The notes under the pieces are model-generated. The model did not search any database. It worked only from the letters and a program-made list of their open reading frames with translations, and had not been told where the DNA came from. Shown one piece after another: positions 1 to 13,849 of a stretch of 13,849 nt of DNA; position 1 is the first letter of the stretch, and each line of letters begins with the position of its first letter. The translations under genes were made by a program, and so were the position numbers. Source of the DNA: Bacillota bacterium (GTDB taxonomy: Bacteria; Bacillota; Dethiobacteria; DTU022; JAAZDR01); assembly GCA_012512705.1 (NCBI GenBank), contig JAAZDR010000141.1, positions 1-13,849 of the forward strand, in the 5' to 3' direction.

Positions 1-696
1 ACTAGCTAATTTTTCAGACCACAAAAGATTCTGTTCTACAATATGGGCATCAGCGAAATCAAGGAGGGCTAAAAGATCGCTACGACTGTCAACAGTGCCA
101 TCACTAAAACCAAGAGCCTCTGCTTCCTGTGTGGTTAAGGTCAAAAGCTCCCCTTTCTTTACAATACCGTCTATTTCTATTTCACGTCTGACCATTGCCT
201 CTGCCAGCTGTGGGTCTTTACCCTGCTCCTGGGCAGCACTGCGCATCTTCCCTACCCACGCAGAAAGGTTTTTCTCATCGATCGCTTCACTGCTGCCGAG
301 GAGCACCGGTTCAGCCGCACCGATCACACTATTAGGGGCCATAAAGAAAGCATCTGTGGATAAGGCAATATAAGCGCCAGCCGATAAAGCATTGCCGCGT
401 ACAAACCCATAGACTTTGCCCGAATAATCCCGTAAAAGACGGTTTATCTTCTCTGCTGAATCTACCATGCCCCCAGGCGTATCAATTTCAAGAATTACCG
501 CTTTGGCAGCCTCATTTTCCGCTTCTAGCAGGACACGTTCCAAAAAATTAACCTGCCCGGGATCGATTGTGCCTTTAAGGGGGACAATATAGACTATCCC
601 TCCCGAAGCAGTAGAAGAGTTAACAACATAGAAAAGAAACAATAAAAATACAAAAAGAAATCTTAACAGAAACTGTTTTTTCTTACACATGCTCAT
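1..696 (-). CDS. NfeD/ClpP-class membrane serine protease (NfeD1b-type), partial, 3' end outside the window
   Basis: Only the first 232 codons are present; the gene continues past the left edge. The N-terminus has a short basic stretch and one hydrophobic segment (about residues 9-26), read as a signal peptide or membrane anchor. A ClpP/crotonase-fold domain of the NfeD1/SppA-like family follows. IDTPGG at about 71-76 is the family motif, and the serine in GNALSAGAY (Ser105) is the expected nucleophile. Lys142 in DEKNLSAW is the likely dyad lysine. Full-length NfeD1b proteins continue with membrane helices and an OB-like NfeD domain, which cannot be seen here. In archaeal homologues this protease cleaves hydrophobic stomatin-like partners; a membrane quality-control role is inferred. 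I chose the ATG at 696 because a GGGGG run lies 7 nt upstream; the in-frame ATG at 690 is an alternative. Its position downstream of rpsU matches common Firmicutes synteny. Confidence 0.85.
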   Translation of the reverse strand, partial: MSMCKKKQFLLRFLFVFLLFLFYVVNSSTASGGIVYIVPLKGTIDPGQVNFLERVLLEAENEAAKAVILEIDTPGGMVDSAEKINRLLRDYSGKVYGFVRGNALSAGAYIALSTDAFFMAPNSVIGAAEPVLLGSSEAIDEKNLSAWVGKMRSAAQEQGKDPQLAEAMVRREIEIDGIVKKGELLTLTTQEAEALGFSDGTVDSRSDLLALLDFADAHIVEQNLLWSEKLAS

Positions 697-2781: not shown

Positions 2782-3354
2782 CTATTTTATCTGCTCTTCT
2801 TCGCCCTCTATCTCTTCGTCTTCTGCAAGCACATCTTCTTGTTCGCCTTTATCAACAGTCCTAAACGGAGCTAGTTGAGCAATAACCCTATCTTCCTCAT
2901 CAATAAAAACCCAATGAGTTTCTTCCGCCTCAACTTCCTTTCGATCTACGGTTATAACATGATAATAATTTTCCCTTGGTGCAACCCGAACCTGAACCTG
3001 AAGCGTATTTTCACCTTGTGATACTGGACGAACAGCTTCGATCTCCCCATTTAAGGAAAGAACAGCAACTTCATAGGCAGCATTAAACGGATAGTCGGGC
3101 AACTGCACCCCTGCATTTTCTTTCAACGCTTCCCAATCCTCTTCATCATAGGCGACTAGAAAATCGGGAGAATATTTGATAGCGCCGCGGTCAGTAGTTA
3201 CAAACGTAATTGTGTTTTCCAGCTCTTCCGGTGCCTCACTCGTTGTTTCCAAACGAAAAAAATTATCATAGACCGACAAGCTGATTAAAAGAACTAACAA
3301 GAAAAGTAGCGGTAAAAGTCGCCGAGCCTCTACAATAAAAAACCGAGTACGCAT
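2782..3354 (-). CDS. Membrane-anchored protein with acidic C-terminal tail, unknown function
   Basis: I do not recognise this 190-residue protein. It begins with a basic stretch (MRTRFFIVEARR), then one hydrophobic segment at about residues 13-28 (LLPLLFLLVLLISLSV). This suggests a single membrane anchor with the rest outside, or an uncleaved signal. The middle, about 50-160, looks like a beta-rich globular domain with alternating charged and hydrophobic residues and no cysteine or obvious catalytic motif. The last 25 or so residues are almost all Glu/Asp/Gln (DVLAEDEEIEGEEEQIK). The frame can start at a TTG (3378) or ATG (3363), but the ATG at 3354 is the one with a GAGAGGG ribosome binding site at about 9 nt. 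It lies about 105 nt downstream of mtaB on the same strand and may be read through from it. Confidence 0.7.
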   Translation of the reverse strand: MRTRFFIVEARRLLPLLFLLVLLISLSVYDNFFRLETTSEAPEELENTITFVTTDRGAIKYSPDFLVAYDEEDWEALKENAGVQLPDYPFNAAYEVAVLSLNGEIEAVRPVSQGENTLQVQVRVAPRENYYHVITVDRKEVEAEETHWVFIDEEDRVIAQLAPFRTVDKGEQEDVLAEDEEIEGEEEQIK

Positions 3355-3459
3355 AAAAGACATCCCTCTCTTTACCAACTTAGTTCACAAGCGAACCAAA
3401 CCTGCTAAGATATTAATATTCATCAACTAAATTATTTATGTCCGCTTACGGTAAAAAAA

Positions 3460-4779
3460 TCAGTCTTCTATACGACCCAAAAGATAACCGTCACTGTCAG
3501 CATAAATTTTAGTTGAAATCAGCTTGCCGGACAGCTCTGCTTTTGCTTTAGCCCTTACTCGTAAATAGTGCTCTGTCAGACCCTCCAGCCAACCTTCAGC
3601 AAAAAACCCCTCAAATAAAACAGGTAGGGTTCTGCCGATGAATCTGCGCCGATAACGGCTGGAAAGCTCATCAGCAAGCTTCATAAGCACCTTGCTGCGC
3701 TCATCTTTTACCTCTGGTGTGATTTGCCCGGACATTTTTGCTGCCGGCGTTCCTCTACGAGGAGAGTATTTAAAGACGTGAATGCGACTGAACTGCATCT
3801 CTTCGATAAAACGATAGCTGCACCAAAAATGTGCTTCCGTTTCCCCGGGAAAGCCCACCATAACATCGGTGGTGAGAGCAATATCGGGAAGCTGCTGCCG
3901 TAAATGCTGCACAAGCGCTCTAAACCAACTGCGATCATAAGGGCGCCGCATCTTTTTTAAGATCTCGTCGTCCCCGCTCTGTAAAGGAAGGTGTAAGTGG
4001 GCGCAAATCTTCTCGAGCTTGACCACGGTTTCGATTAAGTCTGGGGTCATATCAGCAGGCTCTAAGGAGCTAAGGCGCAGGCGCTCAATCCCACCCGTAT
4101 CTTCAAGTAAGCGATGGATCTGTTCTAAGAGGCTAGCAAGAGAATTATTGCCACCTAAATCTTTCCCGTAAAGACCGAGATGCACCCCTGTAAGCACCAG
4201 TTCCTTAAAACCAGAAGCAGCAAGCTCCTTAACCGCTTTTAAAACTGATTCAACGCTCCTGCTGCGTAAAGGCCCGCGGGCATAAGGGATAATACAATAG
4301 GAACAAAACTGTCGACAGCCTTCTTGGATTTTTAAGAAAGCGCGTGTCCTCCCTTGTCCGCTCACCGGCAGCTCTTCAAAATTTACTTCACCATCCCCCT
4401 CAGGATATCTTTCTACCAAGTTCACAGGGACATGCCTCTGCCTTGCCTCATCCACCATCTGCGGTAGGTTTTGACGGTTATGAGTGCCGACAATAAGGTC
4501 AACCTCCTCTATTTGTAATACCTCTTCAGAGCTGACCTGAGCATAGCACCCGGTAACACAGATTATTGCTTCTGGGTTTTGTCTCCTAGCTTTACGGATC
4601 AGTTGTCTCGACTTACGATCGCTCAGATGGGTCACCGTGCAGGTATTGATAATATATAAATCAGCCTTTTGTCCAAAATCTACAATCTTATAACCGTTCT
4701 GGCGAAAAAGTTCTTTCAAAGCTTCTGACTCGCAATAATTTACTTTGCAACCTAGGGTCGCGACTGCCATTTTCTGCAC
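3460..4779 (-). CDS. mtaB: tRNA (N6-L-threonylcarbamoyladenosine(37)-C2)-methylthiotransferase
   Basis: A radical SAM methylthiotransferase that converts t6A37 to ms2t6A in ANN-decoding tRNAs. The N-terminal UPF0004 domain carries three cluster-binding cysteines (LGCKVN Cys11, NTCTV Cys47, VTGCYAQ Cys78). The radical SAM motif is EGCRQFCSYCIIPYARGPLR, with Cys155, Cys159 and Cys162. The C-terminal 65 residues form a TRAM-like RNA-binding domain. Length of 439 residues is normal for MtaB, and the short LGCKVNYCESEAL start points to MtaB rather than MiaB or RimO. I chose the GTG at 4779: GGGGTGAT lies 7 nt upstream, whereas the ATG at 4770 has the same site too far away. The start is 4 nt after the rsmE stop, so the two are coupled. 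Confidence 0.93.
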   Translation of the reverse strand: MQKMAVATLGCKVNYCESEALKELFRQNGYKIVDFGQKADLYIINTCTVTHLSDRKSRQLIRKARRQNPEAIICVTGCYAQVSSEEVLQIEEVDLIVGTHNRQNLPQMVDEARQRHVPVNLVERYPEGDGEVNFEELPVSGQGRTRAFLKIQEGCRQFCSYCIIPYARGPLRSRSVESVLKAVKELAASGFKELVLTGVHLGLYGKDLGGNNSLASLLEQIHRLLEDTGGIERLRLSSLEPADMTPDLIETVVKLEKICAHLHLPLQSGDDEILKKMRRPYDRSWFRALVQHLRQQLPDIALTTDVMVGFPGETEAHFWCSYRFIEEMQFSRIHVFKYSPRRGTPAAKMSGQITPEVKDERSKVLMKLADELSSRYRRRFIGRTLPVLFEGFFAEGWLEGLTEHYLRVRAKAKAELSGKLISTKIYADSDGYLLGRIED

Positions 4780-4783
4780 TAGA

Positions 4784-5524
4784 TCACCCCAGATCCCCAT
4801 ACACATGTTGCAGTATAGTAACTGCTGCCAAAGCTGCTGTTTCCGAACTCATTATCCTTGGACCGAGACTTACTATTTTTGCTCCCGCCTTTCGGGCATT
4901 TTCTACCTCGTGCTCGCTGAATCCCCCCTCCGGGCCGATTAGCAAAAGAATACGCGCCATTTCTTTATCCTCTATAAGGTTGCGAAACATATTTTCCTTT
5001 TCCTCTTCCCAAGGAAGAAAAACCGCATCATAAGTATGCGCAGTCTCTAAAACTTCACCGATGGAAGACACCTCCAGCACTTTTGGAATAACACTGCGTT
5101 TTGCCAAAGCAGCTGCTGAGCGGGCAATTTTTTGCCAGCGATGACACTTTTTTAGCCCCTTTTGCGCGGAAAAACGTGGAACAGTACGCTCGGTACGCAT
5201 TGGTATAATCGCCGATACTCCCAACTCCACTGCATGCCTGATTATATTATCCATCTTCTCACCTTTGGGAATACCCTGAGCAAGGGTAAGGGAAAGGCTA
5301 GGTTCCCTTAAGTCCAGTTCCTGCTCTAAAAGGACCGCTTTGACCCAACCTTCCCGCACAGTTTCCAAACGTGCCCTATACACTTCCCCTTTACCAGAAC
5401 CAATAGAAATCTCTTCACCCTTAACAAGACGCAAAACATTAAAAATATGATGTGCATCCTCACCTGTTAACAATATCTCCTGACCAGGACTAAAATTTTC
5501 CTGCTCAACAAAAAATCTATGCAT
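4784..5524 (-). CDS. rsmE: 16S rRNA (uracil(1498)-N(3))-methyltransferase
   Basis: A SPOUT-class methyltransferase that methylates N3 of U1498 in 16S rRNA using S-adenosylmethionine. The 246 residues match the usual length. The N-terminal PUA-like domain begins MHRFFVEQENF and contains GEDAHHIFNVLRL. The trefoil-knot SAM-binding elements are IGPEGGFSEHE and LGPRIMSSETAALAAV. The second usually reads LGPRILRTETA, so the arginine commonly found there is replaced by serine here. An open frame extends 43 codons upstream, but that stretch runs through a terminator hairpin and is not conserved. The ATG at 5524 has a GGGGGG run 8 nt upstream and matches the family start. In many Bacillota prmA lies between dnaJ and rsmE; here it is absent. 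Confidence 0.94.
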   Translation of the reverse strand: MHRFFVEQENFSPGQEILLTGEDAHHIFNVLRLVKGEEISIGSGKGEVYRARLETVREGWVKAVLLEQELDLREPSLSLTLAQGIPKGEKMDNIIRHAVELGVSAIIPMRTERTVPRFSAQKGLKKCHRWQKIARSAAALAKRSVIPKVLEVSSIGEVLETAHTYDAVFLPWEEEKENMFRNLIEDKEMARILLLIGPEGGFSEHEVENARKAGAKIVSLGPRIMSSETAALAAVTILQHVYGDLG

Positions 5525-5568
5525 CACCGCTTCCCCCCGGCAAGCAAATCTATGATACAAATCAATTA

Positions 5569-5604
5569 CAAAAATGGGTGCCTCTGCTAAAAGCAAGCAC
5601 CCAT
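5569..5604 (-). terminator. Rho-independent terminator after dnaJ
   Basis: On the minus strand, ATGGGTGC (5604-5597) and GCACCCAT (5581-5574) form a perfect 8-bp GC-rich stem, with extra GC pairing inside the loop, followed at once by a T run (5574-5570). It lies 27 nt past the dnaJ stop and 50 nt before the rsmE start. It probably ends or attenuates the heat-shock transcript, leaving rsmE-mtaB partly uncoupled from HrcA control. Confidence 0.7.
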
Positions 5605-5630
5605 ACATAAACCAGCTGATTGCTTCTAAG

Positions 5631-6779
5631 TTATTTCCCTCCGCTAAAAGCATCTTTCATCCGATGAAAAAATTTTTTTTCATCACCTTCCAGCACCTCA
5701 CCGCTAGCAGCAGCGAACTCGCGGAGCGCCTTACGCTGTCGCGTATTGAGACGCCGAGGCACTTCCAGATTTACCTTAACACGCAGATCCCCGCGGCCAA
5801 ACCCTCGCAAGCGAGGCATCCCTTTCCCTTTTAAACGAAAAACTGTCCCGGTCTGTGTACCCTCCGGGATACGCAGCGTTGCCCCACCATCAAGGGTAGG
5901 AATTTTGATCTCTCCTCCCAGGGCTGCCTTGGCAAAACTGATTCCGACCTCGTAGTAAAGATGGTCTCCTCTACGCTCAAACAGTTTATGCGGCTTAACC
6001 CTAATTACAATATATAGATCCCCCGGTGGTCCGCCACGCACTCCGGCTTGGCCTTCACCGCCTATGCGCAGTTTAGAGCCGGTATCAACGCCCGCGGGGA
6101 TATTGATTTTAATCTTACGACGGCGCAACACCCGGCCTTCACCATGACATTCCGGGCATTTCTCTTTTATAATCTGTCCTTCACCATGGCACTGCTCACA
6201 GGTCTTCACATTTACAAATCGCCCGAAAGCGGTACTGCGTACATACTGCTGCTGACCGCTTCCCCCGCAGGCAGGGCAGGTTTGCGGACTGGTTCCGGGT
6301 TTGGCTCCACTGCCATGACAGGTGGGGCAATTCTCCGCACGTGGGATCTCGATCTCTTTTTCTAGACCCTGGGCAGCTTCATTAAGAGTTATATCAAGAT
6401 CATAGCGCAAATCGCTGCCCCGCTGTGGGCCACGCGGATGGCTTTGGCGCATGCCGCCGCCAAAAAACGTCTCAAAAATATCTTCAAACCCGCCAAAATC
6501 GCCAAAACCACCAAAACCTCCGGCGCCGCCAAAACCGCCATACCCTTGCCCCATATCATCTGCAGTATGGCCAAACCGGTCGTACTGTTGACGCTTTTGG
6601 GGATCGCTCAACACATCGTATGCTTCCTTAATCTCCTTAAACTTCTCTTCCGCATCTTTGTCACCGGGATTCATATCCGGATGGTATTTGCGTGCCATCT
6701 TACGGTATGCTTTTTTGATCTCGTCGCGGGTGGCATCTTTACTTATGCCCAAAACCTCATAATAATCCCGTTTGGCCAT
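5631..6779 (-). CDS. dnaJ: Chaperone protein DnaJ (Hsp40)
   Basis: The 382-residue co-chaperone stimulates DnaK ATPase and delivers unfolded clients. Domains in order: a J domain (1-70) with the HPD motif at 33-35; a Gly/Phe-rich linker (about 75-110); then a cysteine-rich zinc-binding domain with four CxxCxGxG repeats at about 151-158 (CPTCHGSG), 168-175 (CPACGGSG), 194-201 (CEQCHGEG) and 208-215 (CPECHGEG). Two C-terminal substrate-binding beta domains complete a type I DnaJ. The frame could begin at a TTG two codons earlier, with better spacing to AAAGG, but I kept the conventional ATG ([11 protein letters not shown]). It follows dnaK by 54 nt in the hrcA operon. Confidence 0.97.
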
Positions 6780-6833
6780 TACCAAACAAACCTTTCTTTT
6801 ACGTTCTTAGTTATAATAAAAAGGCTTCAACCG

Positions 6834-9415: not shown

Positions 9416-10435
9416 TTAAAAAAGTTGATTAAGCTGTTCTGCAAAATACTTAACAATAGCAATAACCTTTGCATATTGCATACGCGTTGGGCCAAGGACA
9501 CCGATTGTGCCAATCGTCTTACCGCCAACTTTATAGCTCGCGGTAACCAAGCTGCATTCTTGAGCTTCTTTTAGTTTGTTTTCTTTGCCGATCTTAACCC
9601 AGACATCCTTTTTCTCCAGTGCAGAGGATAAAAGGGACATTAACAACGAATCTTGTTCAAAAAGGGATAATAGTCGCTTAATCTTTTCCACATTTTTAAA
9701 CTCCGGCTGATTAAGAATTTTCGTTGTGCCACCTAAAAAAATGCGATTATCGTCTTCACTCAGACTTTCCTCGAGTAACAAAAAAGCCTGCTCTAAAATT
9801 TCAATACGGTGGAAAAGATCCCTCTTAAGCTCTCGCAGTAAGGAATTTGTTACCTGATCAATAGCAAGCCCGCGCAACCGTTTGTTAAGGTAGTTAACCA
9901 CCTGATTAAGTTCCTGGGGATTTAACATGCGGGGCAGGTTGATGATCTTATTTTTGATAAAGCCTGTATCAGTAATCAGCACCACAATTCCCCGCTGTTC
10001 GTCAATGGGTATAATTCGCATCTCTTTGAAAGCACTCTTTGTTAGCTGGGGGGCTATCACCAGAGAAGTGTAATTTGTGATCTCTGAAAGTCCCTTTGAT
10101 ACATTCTGGATAATCTGTTCGATCTCCCGCATTTTCTCAAGCTTCAAGGCTTTATTGAGCCTAATTTCCTCTTCTTCAGTAAGAGCGGGAACCTCCATAA
10201 GGAAATCCACGTAATAGCGATAGCCTTTTTCAGAAGGAATTCTGCCGGCCGAAGTATGGGGCTGCTTAAGATACCCCATTTCCTCCAGATCAGCCATTTC
10301 GTTACGAATAGTTGCCGAACTAAACCCCAGATTGTAACGGCGTGCTAGGGTTCTAGAGCCTACAGGTTCAGCATTATTTACATGTTCCTTGACTACAGCG
10401 TATAATATCTGCTTTTTGCGTTCATTAAGAGGCAC
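9416..10435 (-). CDS. hrcA: Heat-inducible transcription repressor HrcA
   Basis: A 339-residue repressor of class I heat-shock genes. It binds CIRCE; in the established model GroEL keeps it active and heat-denatured clients titrate GroEL away. The N-terminal winged helix (about 1-75) has LNERKKQILYAVVKEHV, PVGSRTLARRY, SSATIRNEMADLEEMGYL and HTSAGRIPSEKGYRYYVD, all family signatures. The rest is the GAF-like dimerisation region and an inserted helical domain, ending in GVLGPTRMQYAKVIAIVKYF. The start codon is GTG at 10435, with AGGAGGTG 7 nt upstream. It is the first gene of the operon, directly downstream of a perfect CIRCE, so it is autoregulated. Confidence 0.97.
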   Translation of the reverse strand: MPLNERKKQILYAVVKEHVNNAEPVGSRTLARRYNLGFSSATIRNEMADLEEMGYLKQPHTSAGRIPSEKGYRYYVDFLMEVPALTEEEEIRLNKALKLEKMREIEQIIQNVSKGLSEITNYTSLVIAPQLTKSAFKEMRIIPIDEQRGIVVLITDTGFIKNKIINLPRMLNPQELNQVVNYLNKRLRGLAIDQVTNSLLRELKRDLFHRIEILEQAFLLLEESLSEDDNRIFLGGTTKILNQPEFKNVEKIKRLLSLFEQDSLLMSLLSSALEKKDVWVKIGKENKLKEAQECSLVTASYKVGGKTIGTIGVLGPTRMQYAKVIAIVKYFAEQLNQLF

Positions 10436-10450
10436 TGACTACACCTCCTT

Positions 10451-10477
10451 TTAGCACTCTTAATAAAAGAGTGCTAA
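10451..10477 (-). promoter_or_regulatory. CIRCE operator (HrcA binding site)
   Basis: A perfect 9-9-9 element: TTAGCACTC at 10451-10459, a 9-nt spacer, and GAGTGCTAA at 10469-10477. Both arms match the CIRCE consensus exactly. It lies between the promoter and the hrcA ribosome binding site, with only about two bases between the operator and AGGAGG. HrcA binding would block transcription of hrcA-grpE-dnaK-dnaJ. Confidence 0.97.
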
Positions 10478-10489
10478 GCATCCCTTTAT

Positions 10490-10518
10490 AAAATATCATT
10501 GCCTTTTTCATTTGTCAA
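10490..10518 (-). promoter_or_regulatory. Sigma-A promoter of the hrcA-grpE-dnaK-dnaJ operon
   Basis: Consensus TTGACA (10518-10513) is followed after exactly 17 nt by TATTTT (10495-10490) on the minus strand. The expected start site falls just before CIRCE. The -35 hexamer lies inside the last codons of the hemW remnant (the reading ...LILDK-stop passes through it), so the promoter was embedded in hemW coding sequence. Confidence 0.85.
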
Positions 10519-10635
10519 GAATTAACGGATCTAAAAATTCCCTGAATACAAGGTTGGCAAAGGAACTGCCTCTGGAGTAAGACAGATATAATCTCCCCTA
10601 ATCTCTAAAAGTCCTCTCTTTACCAACAAAATAGT
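10508..10635 (-). pseudogene. hemW: hemW 3'-end remnant (native orientation)
   Basis: On the minus strand this reads LLVKRGLLEIRGDYICLTPEAVPL, then, after a one-base frame change near 10557, ANLVFREFLDPLILDK and a TGA at 10508. This matches the C-terminal winged-helix-like end of HemW (formerly annotated as oxygen-independent coproporphyrinogen III oxidase, a radical SAM heme chaperone). The frame change looks like loss of one G from a GG pair (TTTG-CC for TTTGGCC). Without correction the frame stops at 10531. Its place right before hrcA is the usual hemW position. Upstream, the hemW sequence breaks at about 10635, where the flipped middle of the gene begins. Homology is by eye from family knowledge. 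Confidence 0.75.
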
Positions 10636-11238
10636 TGGCTATTAGCGAGGGAAATTGGCTTTAACAATTTAAATATTGACCTTATCTATGGCCTCCCCGC
10701 ATAAACTGTTGCTGACTGGGAGGATACGCTGCGGGATATCCTTTGTTTTAAACCGGAACATATTTCCCTCTATGGTCTTAGCATAGATGAAGGTGCAATC
10801 TTTGCAGAACAACTGCACCGTAAAAAAATGCAAGGACTACCTGGCGAGGAAGAACAGCGCCTTATGTTCGAAAAGTCACGCCAATTGCTAGAGGAGGAAG
10901 GTTATCTGCATTATGAAATCTCAAACTATGCGTGTCCGGGATTTCAAGGGCAGCATAACTGTCGCTATTGGCAGGCAAAACCATATCTTGGGATCGGTGC
11001 TGGGGCCAGCGGCTATCTGTATGGGGAGCGCTACACAAATACTTGTTCTGTGCGTGACTATATTAATATCTTGTCTGCCGGAAAATTGCCTCTAGCTCAG
11101 AGGGAGCATGTTGGGTATAGGGAAGCGATGGCAGAAAAGATGTTTTTAGGGCTTCGGCTTCTAGAGGGGGTTTCCATGACAGATTTTGAAAAACAATTTG
11201 GTGTTAAACTGAAAGATGTTTTTGGCAGATCTCTTGTG
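10636..11238 (+). pseudogene. hemW: hemW middle fragment, inverted
   Basis: Plus-strand translation gives LLAREIGFNNLNIDLIYGLP, an in-frame TAA at 10702 where HemW normally has GLPGQT (a CAA-to-TAA change would explain it), then TVADWEDTLRDI. From 10828 it is open through YEISNYACPGFQGQHNCRYW, YLGIGAGASGYL, MAEKMFLGLRLLEGV and [10 protein letters not shown]. These are the middle and HemN_C parts of HemW, about residues 155-345 of a usual 380. The N-terminal radical SAM region with the CxxxCxxC cluster motif is absent from the window. The fragment points opposite to its own 3' end at 10508-10635 and to hrcA. With no promoter, no start region and a stop, it is not a working gene. Confidence 0.82.
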
Positions 11239-11580
11239 GATGACTCCCCGGGAGGCACTTTGTGCCGGGGAAGTAGGGTATATTATTGCGGGGATAAAAA
11301 ATATTAGGGATGGATTTTTGGGACTTTTACATATGGAGATTATTCAGGAAAGGTTGGAACGCGAATATGGGCTGGAGTTGATCGCTACCGCACCGAACGT
11401 TAATTATAAGGTAACAAAGACTGATGGGAAAATACTTTTCGTTGACAACCCTTCGCGGATGCCGCCGATCAAGAGATCGAGATAATCGCTGAGCCTTATG
11501 TTGAGGCGCGGATTATTGCTACGCAGGAATTTATCGGTGCAGTGATGGAGCTGTGCCAGGAAAAACGCGGAGCCTTTAAG
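11239..11580 (+). pseudogene. lepA: lepA middle fragment, inverted, with internal deletion
   Basis: Plus-strand translation gives [20 protein letters not shown] then NIRD, which jumps directly (at about 11311) to [20 protein letters not shown], skipping some 70 codons in frame. [21 protein letters not shown] follows. A one-base loss near 11465 shifts the frame, after which [37 protein letters not shown] resumes. These are EF4/LepA domains II-IV (roughly residues 255-435 of 600). EF4 is a ribosome-associated translational GTPase. The fragment joins hemW sequence on its left without spacer and meets the lepA 5' fragment, on the opposite strand, on its right. The last quarter of lepA is missing. 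Confidence 0.85.
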
Positions 11581-11583
11581 ATC

Positions 11584-12088
11584 CCTGTTCCTTCCTTTGC
11601 TGCCGAAACGAGTATAGCATCATCAGCGTCAAGCCGATTATCTCCTCCAACTCGTGCTTCACTCGCTCCGGATCAGCACTGGGAATATCAATCTTATTAA
11701 TAACAGGAACGATCTCCAAATCGTGTTCAAGAGCAAGAAAGACATTGGCTATAGTTTGCGCCTCGATCCCTTGGGCAGCATCAACCACTAACAGCGCCCC
11801 TTCAGCCAAACTGCGCGAAACTTCATAAACAAAGTCAACATGACCCGGTGTGTCAATAAGGTTGAGCAGGTAAATCTGTCCATCACGCGCCTTATATTCC
11901 AAAGCGTACAGCCTTTAGTTTAATGGTTATACCGCGTTCCCGTTCAAGGTCCATCGAATCAAGAACCTGGTTTTTCATTTCCCTTTCGGTAAGGTGCCTG
12001 TATACTCGAGCATGCGGTCGGCAAGCGTTGATTTCCCGTGATCAATGTGAGCAATAATCGAAAAATTGCGGATCTGCTTCCGATGCAT
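11584..12088 (-). pseudogene. lepA: lepA 5' fragment (native orientation), frameshifted
   Basis: On the minus strand, starting at the ATG at 12088, this reads [27 protein letters not shown] (the G1 P-loop of EF4). It shifts frame after EYTGTL (one base lost before CCGAAAGG), continues [24 protein letters not shown], and shifts again at an extra T near 11908. It then runs [20 protein letters not shown] (G3), a two-residue deletion in [10 protein letters not shown], and [25 protein letters not shown] (G4 NKID). A third frameshift (TTG-ACG for TTGGACG) follows, ending ...ILVSAAKE near 11590. That is about residues 1-165 of 600. It lies between spoIIP and hrcA, the standard lepA position, and keeps its promoter. 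Confidence 0.88.
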
Positions 12089-12236: not shown

Positions 12237-12506
12237 CTACAAACCAGTAAAACCTGGAACCCACTGCAGCAGCTCGCTGCCAAAGACTAAGCATTCCTTG
12301 AGCTCAAGGCGGTAGCTTTTACCAGCAAAAATTAATGTTATCGTATACTCAGGTTCTAATCTCAAACGTAGGGCTTGAAGCTCTTTTTCTTCCCCTGTCA
12401 GGGAAAGCAACCCAATTTCAGCTACTGTCAGAGATAAGTGAAGGAAAATCAAGATAAGCAAAAAGGCAAAAATTGTTAACCAAAAATTTCTTTTAAAAAA
12501 AAACAT
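12237..12506 (-). CDS. Small single-pass membrane protein, unknown function
   Basis: I do not recognise this 89-residue product. It starts with MFFFKRNFW, has one strong hydrophobic segment (about residues 8-27, WLTIFAFLLILIFLHLSL), and then a small soluble part of about 60 residues. That part has an amphipathic charged stretch (GEEKELQALRLRLEPE) and beta-like segments (YTITLIFAGKSYRLEL). It follows spoIIP by 66 nt on the same strand and is closed by a good terminator, which supports a real transcription unit. The start is uncertain: the frame opens upstream to a TTG at 12548 without a ribosome binding site, while the ATG at 12506 has only a weak GGGA and lies inside a terminator-like hairpin. 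A sporulation link is suggested only by position. Confidence 0.5.
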   Translation of the reverse strand: MFFFKRNFWLTIFAFLLILIFLHLSLTVAEIGLLSLTGEEKELQALRLRLEPEYTITLIFAGKSYRLELKECLVFGSELLQWVPGFTGL

Positions 12507-12550
12507 TTTGTCCCATTCCGTTTTGAAATTATTATTAGCATGGGACAAAA
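12495..12550 (-). terminator. Hairpin plus T9 downstream of spoIIP
   Basis: On the minus strand, TTTTGTCCCAT (12550-12540) and ATGGGACAAAA (12516-12506) are a perfect 11-bp inverted repeat with a 23-nt loop, followed after two bases by nine T residues (12503-12495). It lies 23 nt after the spoIIP stop and looks like its terminator, though the loop is long. The T run also encodes the Phe residues at the start of the small ORF. Confidence 0.55.
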
Positions 12551-12572: not shown

Positions 12573-13757
12573 TCAATCCTTAAAATTGGCATGATAAGTT
12601 TCAGCAATAGCTCTTGCCAGATAGGGGATGGTAAGCAAAGCTTCTTCCAAGCTATTCTCATGTCCGCCAATTTCAATAATCAATGCCCCTGGATGGAGAT
12701 CCTGATTGTAATTAAATTTTTTCTGCCGTATGCCTCGTGATAAATCGGCTGACTCTCTTTCCAGGTGCTGCTGTAGACTTAAGGCAAGCTTCAGATTATC
12801 CTGCCAGCCTTCATGGTTAGAACCGAGCACAATTAAAATATTGCCGATCTCCTTTCCATCCACAATAGCTGTGGTCAACGACCGTGAAACACCATCTCGA
12901 TGCAGATCAATGACCATCTTTACATTCTGGTTTTCTTGAAGGAGCTTTTCTAAAGTAGGCCTAGCTTTGCTGTAAGCTAATGTTCGAGGCACATCGTGGA
13001 TTTTTTTATTGTGCAATACTGCCAGACCGTATTCCTCCTCCAACTGCTGTTTCAATTTCTCTCCCAGGAAGGCAACACTCTTCTCTAATTCTTCTGTAAA
13101 AGCTTTGCCGACTGTTGGTACAAATGTTTCCGTAGTATGAGTATGGTAAATAATAATTACCGGTTCGTCTCTATTAACCGTATCCATGGAGGAGCTTGTT
13201 CCCGTCCCTTTCCCCTCGCCTTTTGGCAGGTTGTTCTTACCGCGCTGCTGTTCACTTTTATCCCTCCATTCACCACCTTCTATCACCACAGACGGGTAGT
13301 AAACAGCAGGTAAGGGGAAAAGCTCCATCCCGCTCAACTCGGCAACAAGTAACGTCTGTGGCCGAGAAAAATCCAACCCTAATAATACATTTATAACTCC
13401 GTTTATTATTCCCGGTTCGCTTAAACCGGGGAAAAGACGAAAAGAACCCGTTTCCATTACGGGAATATTTTCGGCAAGTGCAGATTTTAAAAAAGACAAG
13501 TCTCTAAAATAAGAACCTTTCTCTAGGGTAGCCCCCTTATCTTCAATCCCTCCTCCATTCTCAGTCTTAGCCACTGGTAAGCCCTCTTCCGCCGCTTCCT
13601 CATAAAAGGGTGTTTCCGTATTCATATTTTTTAATGAAGCAAAACTATGCAAAAGGGCAAACCCCAGCATCAAAGTAATTAACACATGAATACAAAGGAA
13701 TCTATCGTTTCGATATCGACGTCGTCTATAACCCCGGTTCAATATTTTTGAAATCAC
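12573..13757 (-). CDS. spoIIP: Stage II sporulation protein P (engulfment peptidoglycan hydrolase)
   Basis: SpoIIP is the amidase/endopeptidase of the SpoIIDMP complex that thins septal peptidoglycan and drives engulfment of the forespore. The 394-residue form has a basic N-terminus, one membrane anchor (about residues 22-38) and a low-complexity linker. The C-terminal catalytic domain has IYHTHTTE (His205, His207), VIDLHRDG (His286) and NQDLHPGALIIEIGGHEN (Glu362, Asn368), the expected zinc-enzyme motifs. The frame opens at an ATG (13781) with no ribosome binding site; the GTG at 13757 has GGGAGG 5 nt upstream and is preferred. It lies in the usual place upstream of lepA. The 92 bases between this start and the right edge hold no gene and no promoter I can call with confidence. 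It shows the organism or its recent ancestor was an endospore former. Confidence 0.92.
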   Translation of the reverse strand: MISKILNRGYRRRRYRNDRFLCIHVLITLMLGFALLHSFASLKNMNTETPFYEEAAEEGLPVAKTENGGGIEDKGATLEKGSYFRDLSFLKSALAENIPVMETGSFRLFPGLSEPGIINGVINVLLGLDFSRPQTLLVAELSGMELFPLPAVYYPSVVIEGGEWRDKSEQQRGKNNLPKGEGKGTGTSSSMDTVNRDEPVIIIYHTHTTETFVPTVGKAFTEELEKSVAFLGEKLKQQLEEEYGLAVLHNKKIHDVPRTLAYSKARPTLEKLLQENQNVKMVIDLHRDGVSRSLTTAIVDGKEIGNILIVLGSNHEGWQDNLKLALSLQQHLERESADLSRGIRQKKFNYNQDLHPGALIIEIGGHENSLEEALLTIPYLARAIAETYHANFKD

Positions 13758-13849
13758 TTTTTCCTCCCAGTACTTGTACATGGAATTTAGTATTAAATTT
13801 TATTAATAAACACCCCTTTTTATGTCTGCCAGATTACTACTGTCTCTTA

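What the first reader, a model, noticed from the sequence alone, without database searches (positions are those of the whole stretch)
10508..12088. lepA and hemW broken into four pieces with both middles flipped in place
Left to right the locus reads: hemW 3' end (minus), hemW middle (plus), lepA middle (plus), lepA 5' end (minus). The ancestral order is all minus. A single inversion would also swap the two middles, but they keep their order, each reversed where it stands, and the hemW 5' and lepA 3' parts between them are lost. At least two inversions plus a deletion, an inverted duplicate, or serial template switching is needed. All flanking genes are intact. Losing both lepA and hemW in an otherwise normal chromosome would be unusual.
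Basis: partly seen in the sequence, partly recalled or inferred. Interest (0 to 1): 0.75.

Follow-up and report, generated by a model that had tools for sequence, protein, structure and literature searches.

The report
Scrambled remains of two discarded genes
An uncultured bacterium carries the broken, partly flipped remains of two neighbouring genes, one of them (lepA) kept by nearly all bacteria, and comparison with its relatives suggests that this group often loses both genes and sometimes takes up a replacement lepA.

Summary
Between intact hrcA and spoIIP lie hemW 3' end (-), hemW middle (+), two lepA middle pieces (+) and lepA 5' end (-), joined at four junctions; hemW ~1-147 and lepA ~169-242, ~265-339 and ~429-end are missing. 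The pieces also carry a stop and five frame breaks, while 12 other ORFs (10.4 kb) are open: a decaying relic rather than a chimera of intact genes. No intact lepA or hemW was found elsewhere in this 87%-complete assembly. The ancestral lepA-hemW-hrcA order survives in G002 of the same order. Such loss is not unusual here: lepA passes its cut-off in 34 of 71 genomes of the order, hemW in 1 of 71, and 13 of 66 fetched slots are closed. Most surviving lepA genes are another, relocated type; vertical descent of lepA within family f5 is rejected (p-AU 2.6e-7). The relic falls outside that type. The hemW cut is clean, as a true inversion leaves. One shatter-and-rejoin event or several steps: undecided. 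No reads or second assembly were available.

The parts
9416..10435 (-). hrcA, intact; left flank of the slot
   Evidence: TIGR00331 367.1 bits against a cut-off of 197.2
10451..10477 (.). CIRCE element (TTAGCACTC-N9-GAGTGCTAA): hrcA keeps its own control region, so losing lepA-hemW upstream need not silence it (inference)
   Evidence: exact match, 0 in 200 shuffles; the name and consensus of CIRCE are recalled
10508..10635 (-). hemW 3' end relic, residues ~346-382, one frame break
   Evidence: tblastn to G002 HemW; frames; alignment
10636..11234 (+). hemW middle relic, inverted in place, residues ~147-346, stop at 10702-10704
   Evidence: TIGR00539 160.3 bits
11235..11311 (+). lepA middle relic, first part, residues ~243-264, inverted
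11312..11577 (+). lepA middle relic, second part, residues ~340-428, inverted, one frame break
   Evidence: TIGR01393 72.7 bits for 11303-11473
11580..12088 (-). lepA 5' end relic, residues 1-168, three frame breaks and a 6-base in-frame loss
   Evidence: TIGR01393 213.6 bits, E 2.5e-63
12573..13781 (-). spoIIP, intact; right flank of the slot
   Evidence: TIGR02867 173.5 bits against a cut-off of 123.15

Best explanation
This is the decaying relic of the native lepA-hemW pair of an uncultured Bacillota bacterium, in its ancestral slot between spoIIP and hrcA. Shown: the pieces, their order and strands, the missing parts, the extra point lesions, the open neighbours, and the ancestral order in relatives. 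Inferred: the locus was broken by local double-strand-break repair that re-joined two inverted fragments (hemW ~147-346 and lepA ~243-428) between the two outer ends and dropped what lay between, after or while the genes were free of selection; small indels then built up. Relatives show where this leads: in some the slot is closed, with spoIIP next to hrcA. In this order losing the pair is the rule for hemW and common for lepA, and several lineages have a lepA of another, horizontally spread type at another place.
For: Pieces and lesions. Five frame breaks and a stop lie in 1.57 kb of relic, none in 12 ORFs of 10.4 kb (4e-5 for the five frame breaks under a uniform rate; lesions were counted by eye and the ORFs were picked because they are open, so this is a guide only). 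Order spoIIP-lepA-hemW-hrcA in 7 of the 11 outgroup loci L048-L058; lepA C-terminus, hemW and hrcA in a row in G002. spoIIP beside hrcA with no lepA or hemW match between in 13 of 66 slots. hemW over its cut-off in 1 of 71 genomes of the order; at 95% completeness or more, in 0 of 24 of the order (window genome not counted) against 11 of 13 of the rest of the class, all 11 next to lepA. lepA in 14 of 24 against 12 of 13 (Fisher p 0.057). At least 8 changes of lepA state on the species tree. The relic lies outside the relocated lepA type. A Ku gene is present; LigD was not searched.
Against: No reads, coverage or second assembly could be examined. Two ORFs at the junctions were found in the protein collection, at this identity, only from this contig. 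The genome is 87% complete in 327 contigs, so an intact copy elsewhere cannot be ruled out. The contrast in lepA presence between the order and the rest of its class is weak on its own (p 0.057). In one search the relic stands beside LepA of the rest of the class (support 81) and not with the slot copies of its own order; with 46% of columns filled its place is unsure.
Confidence: 0.78

Rival explanations
1. Assembly or whole-genome-amplification chimera: the real genome has intact lepA and hemW here and the scrambled order was made in the laboratory or the assembler.
For: The junction ORFs are seen only in this contig; the genome is in 327 contigs; inverted joins with missing sequence are a known amplification artefact (recalled).
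Against: The pieces carry a stop and five frame breaks, absent from the 12 other ORFs counted; no intact copy was found in other contigs; the order as a whole has mostly lost hemW and often lepA.
Confidence: 0.14
2. Stepwise history, as a variant of the relic reading: hemW and lepA were each inverted in place in separate events, followed by separate deletions, rather than one multi-break repair event.
For: Each junction can be written as a simple inversion or deletion; the lepA 264/340 join is a plain deletion.
Against: Two independent small in-place inversions in neighbouring genes, plus a deletion ending within about two codons of one inversion end, is a coincidence that a single event does not need.
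Confidence: 0.4
3. A programmed invertible switch that turns lepA or hemW on and off.
For: Two inverted segments inside genes. Two imperfect inverted-repeat pairs (14 and 11 nt, I1 and I4) enclose the stretch from the first to the third junction.
Against: Large parts of both genes are absent. The arms of I1 and I4 lie about 10-90 bases outside the junctions, and the slot has no more inverted matches than shuffled sequence (76 at score 8 or more against 64-100 in 8 shuffles). No recombinase was found among the 15 distinct window proteins scanned (44 ORFs are listed).
Confidence: 0.01

Closest known systems
Pseudogenes formed by inversion and deletion in bacterial chromosomes (known kind, recalled)
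   Same: Recognisable gene pieces with a stop, frame breaks and missing parts in the ancestral slot.
   Different: Two neighbouring genes are each flipped in place by at least four junctions.
lepA (elongation factor 4, TIGR01393)
   Same: The N-terminal piece and two middle pieces together are 72-78% identical to the 12 closest LepA rows listed.
   Different: Three parts missing, pieces on opposite strands, four frame breaks; no piece reaches the family cut-off.
hemW (radical SAM haem chaperone, TIGR00539)
   Same: Middle and 3' parts align to G002 HemW.
   Different: The N-terminal part is gone, one stop, one frame break, two strands.
Small-scale shatter-and-rejoin or template-switch rearrangements (recalled from work on eukaryotes)
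   Same: Several short fragments re-joined locally in mixed orientation with loss between.
   Different: In a bacterium, at gene scale, and one event is not shown.

Membership tests
lepA, TIGR01393 | score over the curated cut-off of 533.9 bits | tested here: not met
   best piece 213.6 bits
lepA, TIGR01393 | one open reading frame from the G domain to the C-terminal domain | tested here: not met
   pieces on two strands, part after residue ~428 absent
hemW, TIGR00539 | score over the curated cut-off of 205.4 bits | tested here: not met
   160.3 bits
hemW, TIGR00539 | N-terminal radical-SAM part with the cysteine cluster (feature recalled) | tested here: not met
   residues ~1-147 of G002 HemW find no credible match in the slot
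pseudogene in the ancestral slot | disabling lesions and no functional copy in the genome | tested here: met
   limited by 87% completeness
pseudogene in the ancestral slot | functional orthologues at the same place in relatives | tested here: met
   lepA-hemW-hrcA in G002 (lepA split over two contigs), spoIIP-lepA-hemW-hrcA in 7 of 11 outgroup loci
invertible DNA switch | inverted repeats at the ends of the segment and a site-specific recombinase | tested here: not met
   no repeat at the junctions themselves and no excess over shuffles; no recombinase among 15 window proteins scanned
assembly or amplification chimera | no reads span the joins | not testable with these tools
   no read data

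The most novel reading that the evidence does not exclude
One break-and-rejoin event, probably by Ku-type end joining, shattered the native lepA-hemW pair into inverted fragments in a lineage where the near-universal translation GTPase LepA is dispensable: native lepA is repeatedly lost and a mobile, horizontally spread lepA comes and goes in its place. The order would then be a natural experiment on what LepA is for.
Probability: 0.25. Interest if true: 0.65.

Novelty: new member of a known kind. Interest (0 to 1): 0.5.

Why it matters
LepA is described as found in all bacteria (PMC4245954, start of abstract) and was missing from only 1 of 191 genomes in an early survey (PMC1780047, passages), yet its role in the cell is unsettled. 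An order in which 15 of 35 well-assembled genomes lack it, in which the native copy can be seen dying in one member, and in which other members carry a horizontally spread type, gives near-matched genomes with and without it. The same order has almost completely dropped hemW. The relic also records an unusual multi-junction break in a bacterial chromosome.

Tried and rejected
Independent confirmation of the junctions: two ORFs at the junctions were searched in the large protein collection; apart from the window's own contig, the next best by E-value were 45% (hemW ORF) and 78% (lepA ORF) identical, so the junctions are neither confirmed nor refuted. Only proteins of 0.55 to 1.75 times the query length can appear there. 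The plasmid collection gave 47 records, all at 60-80% identity; the 20 listed all lie on the lepA 5' piece.

A link between lepA and sporulation (spoIIP): the raw table looks inverse (42 genomes with both traits known: 15 lepA-/spoIIP+, 15 lepA+/spoIIP-, 9 with both, 3 with neither), but in 8 independent pairs that differ in lepA, spoIIP hardly ever differs, so it reflects shared ancestry and is no evidence of a link.

Gene neighbours as an explanation of the relocated lepA: Pfam of 10 neighbours in 5 genomes shows no shared family; one is an IS200-like transposase.

Inverted repeats as the cause: six pairs, no more matches than in 8 shuffles. Papers on template switching or small inversions in bacteria: listings only (2 papers, 12 of 37 listed), nothing used.

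One search gave a false placement of the relic in the LepA tree because three fragments were translated in wrong frames; it was discarded and redone. Weak HemW matches (G031, 24.5% identity, E 9e-6; G019, 27%, E 0.002; G051, 27%, E 0.036) were taken as other proteins or chance, without a test; in G031 and G051 they lie beyond spoIIP, outside the slot.

Full report
WHAT IS THERE. The window is a whole contig (C94) of a genome of 1.54 Mb in 327 contigs, 87% complete. Between intact hrcA (9416-10435, -) and intact spoIIP (12573-13781, -) lie pieces of hemW and lepA. Against the intact HemW of G002 and the LepA of G017 and G002 (pieces placed on alignments) they read, left to right: hemW residues ~346-382 on the minus strand (10508-~10635); hemW ~147-346 on the plus strand (~10636-~11234); lepA 243-264 (plus, to ~11311); lepA 340-428 (plus, to 11577); lepA 168-1 on the minus strand (11580-12088). 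hemW ~1-147 and lepA ~169-242, ~265-339 and ~429-end are absent. Neither gene reaches its family cut-off anywhere in the genome, and the slot DNA has no other match in it.

LESIONS. Reading all frames, the hemW middle has one stop; the hemW 3' piece one frame break; the second lepA middle piece one; the lepA 5' piece three, and a 6-base in-frame loss. Twelve other ORFs of the contig, 10,374 bases, are open (length sum). If the five frame breaks fell evenly over relic and ORFs, all would land in the 1,571 bases of relic with probability 4e-5. This is a guide only: the lesions were counted by eye, the ORFs were picked because they are open, and in-frame losses in them were not looked for. It speaks against random sequencing error and against a chimera of intact genes; it is what a dead gene accumulates. 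At the protein level the lepA pieces are still 78% identical to G002 LepA over 222 positions and 72-73% to the other rows among the 12 closest, so the death looks recent compared with the age of the lineage (inference).

THE REARRANGEMENT. In the HemW alignment the middle piece is homologous to its relatives up to about the codon where the 3' piece begins: both sides of one cut are kept, with no more than about two codons of overlap or loss. That is the mark of a fragment flipped in place. The other end of the flipped fragment joins the 3' piece at about codon 147. In lepA the right-hand join (428 on plus, 168 on minus) is what an in-place flip of ~169-428 would leave; its left-hand join is gone, removed with hemW 1-147, lepA 429-end and lepA 169-242. 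lepA 264/340 is an internal in-frame deletion. The deletion that ends at the hemW cut suggests that flip and deletion were one event, with four or more breaks and re-joining of the fragments (inference). A Ku gene is present in the genome, at a contig edge, so end joining is possible; LigD was not searched. Of six inverted-repeat pairs in the slot two imperfect ones enclose the stretch between the first and third junctions, some 10-90 bases outside them; the number of such matches is that of shuffled sequence. A 5-base hairpin straddles the first join (seen by eye), too short to weigh.

ANCESTRAL STATE AND RELATIVES. Of 28 hrcA loci examined (L031-L058 of the 80), 7 outgroup loci (L048, L049, L051, L052, L053, L056, L057) have spoIIP, lepA, hemW and hrcA in this order, three (L050, L055, L058) show hemW before hrcA without lepA or spoIIP in the locus, and L054 shows none of them; in the 17 nearest (L031-L047) no lepA or hemW match was found, some of these loci being short on that side. 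In the window's order, G002 has the lepA C-terminus, hemW and hrcA in a row, with the front part of its lepA at the end of another contig. Slots next to hrcA were fetched for 66 genomes, the window's included (several cut short by contig ends), and searched: lepA end and hemW in G002; lepA without hemW beside hrcA in G010, G039 and G066; the relic in G000; spoIIP within about 0.6 kb of hrcA and no match to lepA or hemW between in 13 (G001, G003, G005, G016, G024, G030, G031, G034, G050, G051, G052, G053, G054); in the rest no lepA or hemW in the fetched part, apart from the weak matches told under Tried and rejected.

HOW COMMON IS THE LOSS. In 71 genomes of the order, the window's included, lepA passes its cut-off in 34; two more (G041, G058) have a clear piece at a contig end. 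Among the 35 genomes at least 90% complete and at most 5% contaminated, 20 have it and 15 do not (my count from the rows). hemW passes in 1 of 71, G002; four others (G024, G034, G058, G012) have longer relatives below the cut-off, in frames of 418-426 aa, which I did not count as hemW. With genomes at least 95% complete, the window genome set aside, lepA is in 14 of 24 of this order and 12 of 13 of the rest of the class, hemW in 0 of 24 and 11 of 13, all 11 beside lepA by their coordinates; Fisher p 0.057 for lepA and 9e-8 for hemW. In the 14 control genomes, which include four archaea, each of the two families passes its cut-off in 10.

TWO KINDS OF LEPA. A tree of HrcA, GrpE and DnaK (72 rows, quick method, SH-aLRT) makes families f2, f4 and f5 each one clade (100, 97, 99) and puts G000 beside f4+f2 (96, 98); the tool warned of long branches in the outgroup and in G002. 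The fewest changes of lepA state on it are 8 (41 rows with lepA, six of them outgroups; 18 without; 13 not counted because they are under 90% complete). The LepA tree is different: lepA genes not found in the hrcA slot, 28 rows from f2, f4 and f5, together with G083 of the rest of the class, form one group (support 95; 100 for the part without G083, G017 and G019), while the slot copies of G002, G010, G039 and G066 and the window relic lie outside it. For six of the 28 the slot was fetched only for 0.6-3.3 kb (G065, G009, G042, G036, G043, G063), for G006 4.3 kb, G061 has no hrcA match, and the slot of G083 was not fetched. Holding all f5 LepA together is rejected (p-AU 2.63e-7; the family label is the database's, but I chose the test after seeing the first tree). 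So most lepA genes found in this order are a relocated and, most likely, horizontally spread type, and the native lepA survives in few. Neighbours of the relocated copies differ in the 5 genomes looked at. The exact place of the relic is unsure: 46% of columns filled, support 81 beside LepA of the rest of the class, at the base of the order.

WHAT IS KNOWN. LepA is called found in all bacteria (PMC4245954, start of abstract in the listing) and nearly universal, missing from 1 of 191 genomes (PMC1780047, passages); PMC4342817 calls it universal or almost so, and non-essential (passages); it is kept in all Mollicutes of one survey (PMC4014445, passages). Searches for lepA loss, or for lepA with hemW or hrcA (1, 20 of 101, 4, 15 of 31 and 15 of 43 papers listed) showed, in titles and starts of abstracts, no report of loss across an order; most subscription papers are not in that library. 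HemW as a haem chaperone: listing only.

VERDICT. The feature is real in the sequence, most likely real in the genome, and best read as a recently dead native lepA-hemW pair broken by local multi-break repair. As a pseudogene it is of a known kind; its setting, an order that discards hemW and turns lepA over, is the more interesting part.

Noticed in passing
L111-L140 and L307-L319 (lepA loci), tree: lepA genes not found in the hrcA slot form one group that crosses families f2, f4, f5 and G083 of the rest of the class: probably a horizontally spread lepA.
   Followed up: partly
L120:648-1445: An IS200-like transposase lies next to the relocated lepA of G012.
   Followed up: no
window 12237-12548 (-): ORF of 103 aa with a hydrophobic stretch (by eye) between lepA and spoIIP, no Pfam or NCBIfam match.
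   Followed up: no
window 2782-3378 (-): ORF of 198 aa beside a radical SAM gene (3460-4806), no Pfam or NCBIfam match.
   Followed up: no
window 4784-6785: dnaJ is followed directly by an RNA methyltransferase of the RsmE kind; prmA, which often lies between them (recalled), was not seen by eye in the ORF list; no profile search was made for it.
   Followed up: no
order-wide: spoIIP is found in 35 of 71 genomes; G000 has three copies (C94, C140, C281), while many genomes of family f2 have none, which may mean loss of sporulation there.
   Followed up: partly
window 10451-10477: Perfect CIRCE element beside the hemW 3' relic, on the hrcA side.
   Followed up: yes
G072 (rest of the class): This 98%-complete genome has neither lepA nor hemW over the cut-offs, which suggests a further loss outside the window's order.
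   Followed up: no
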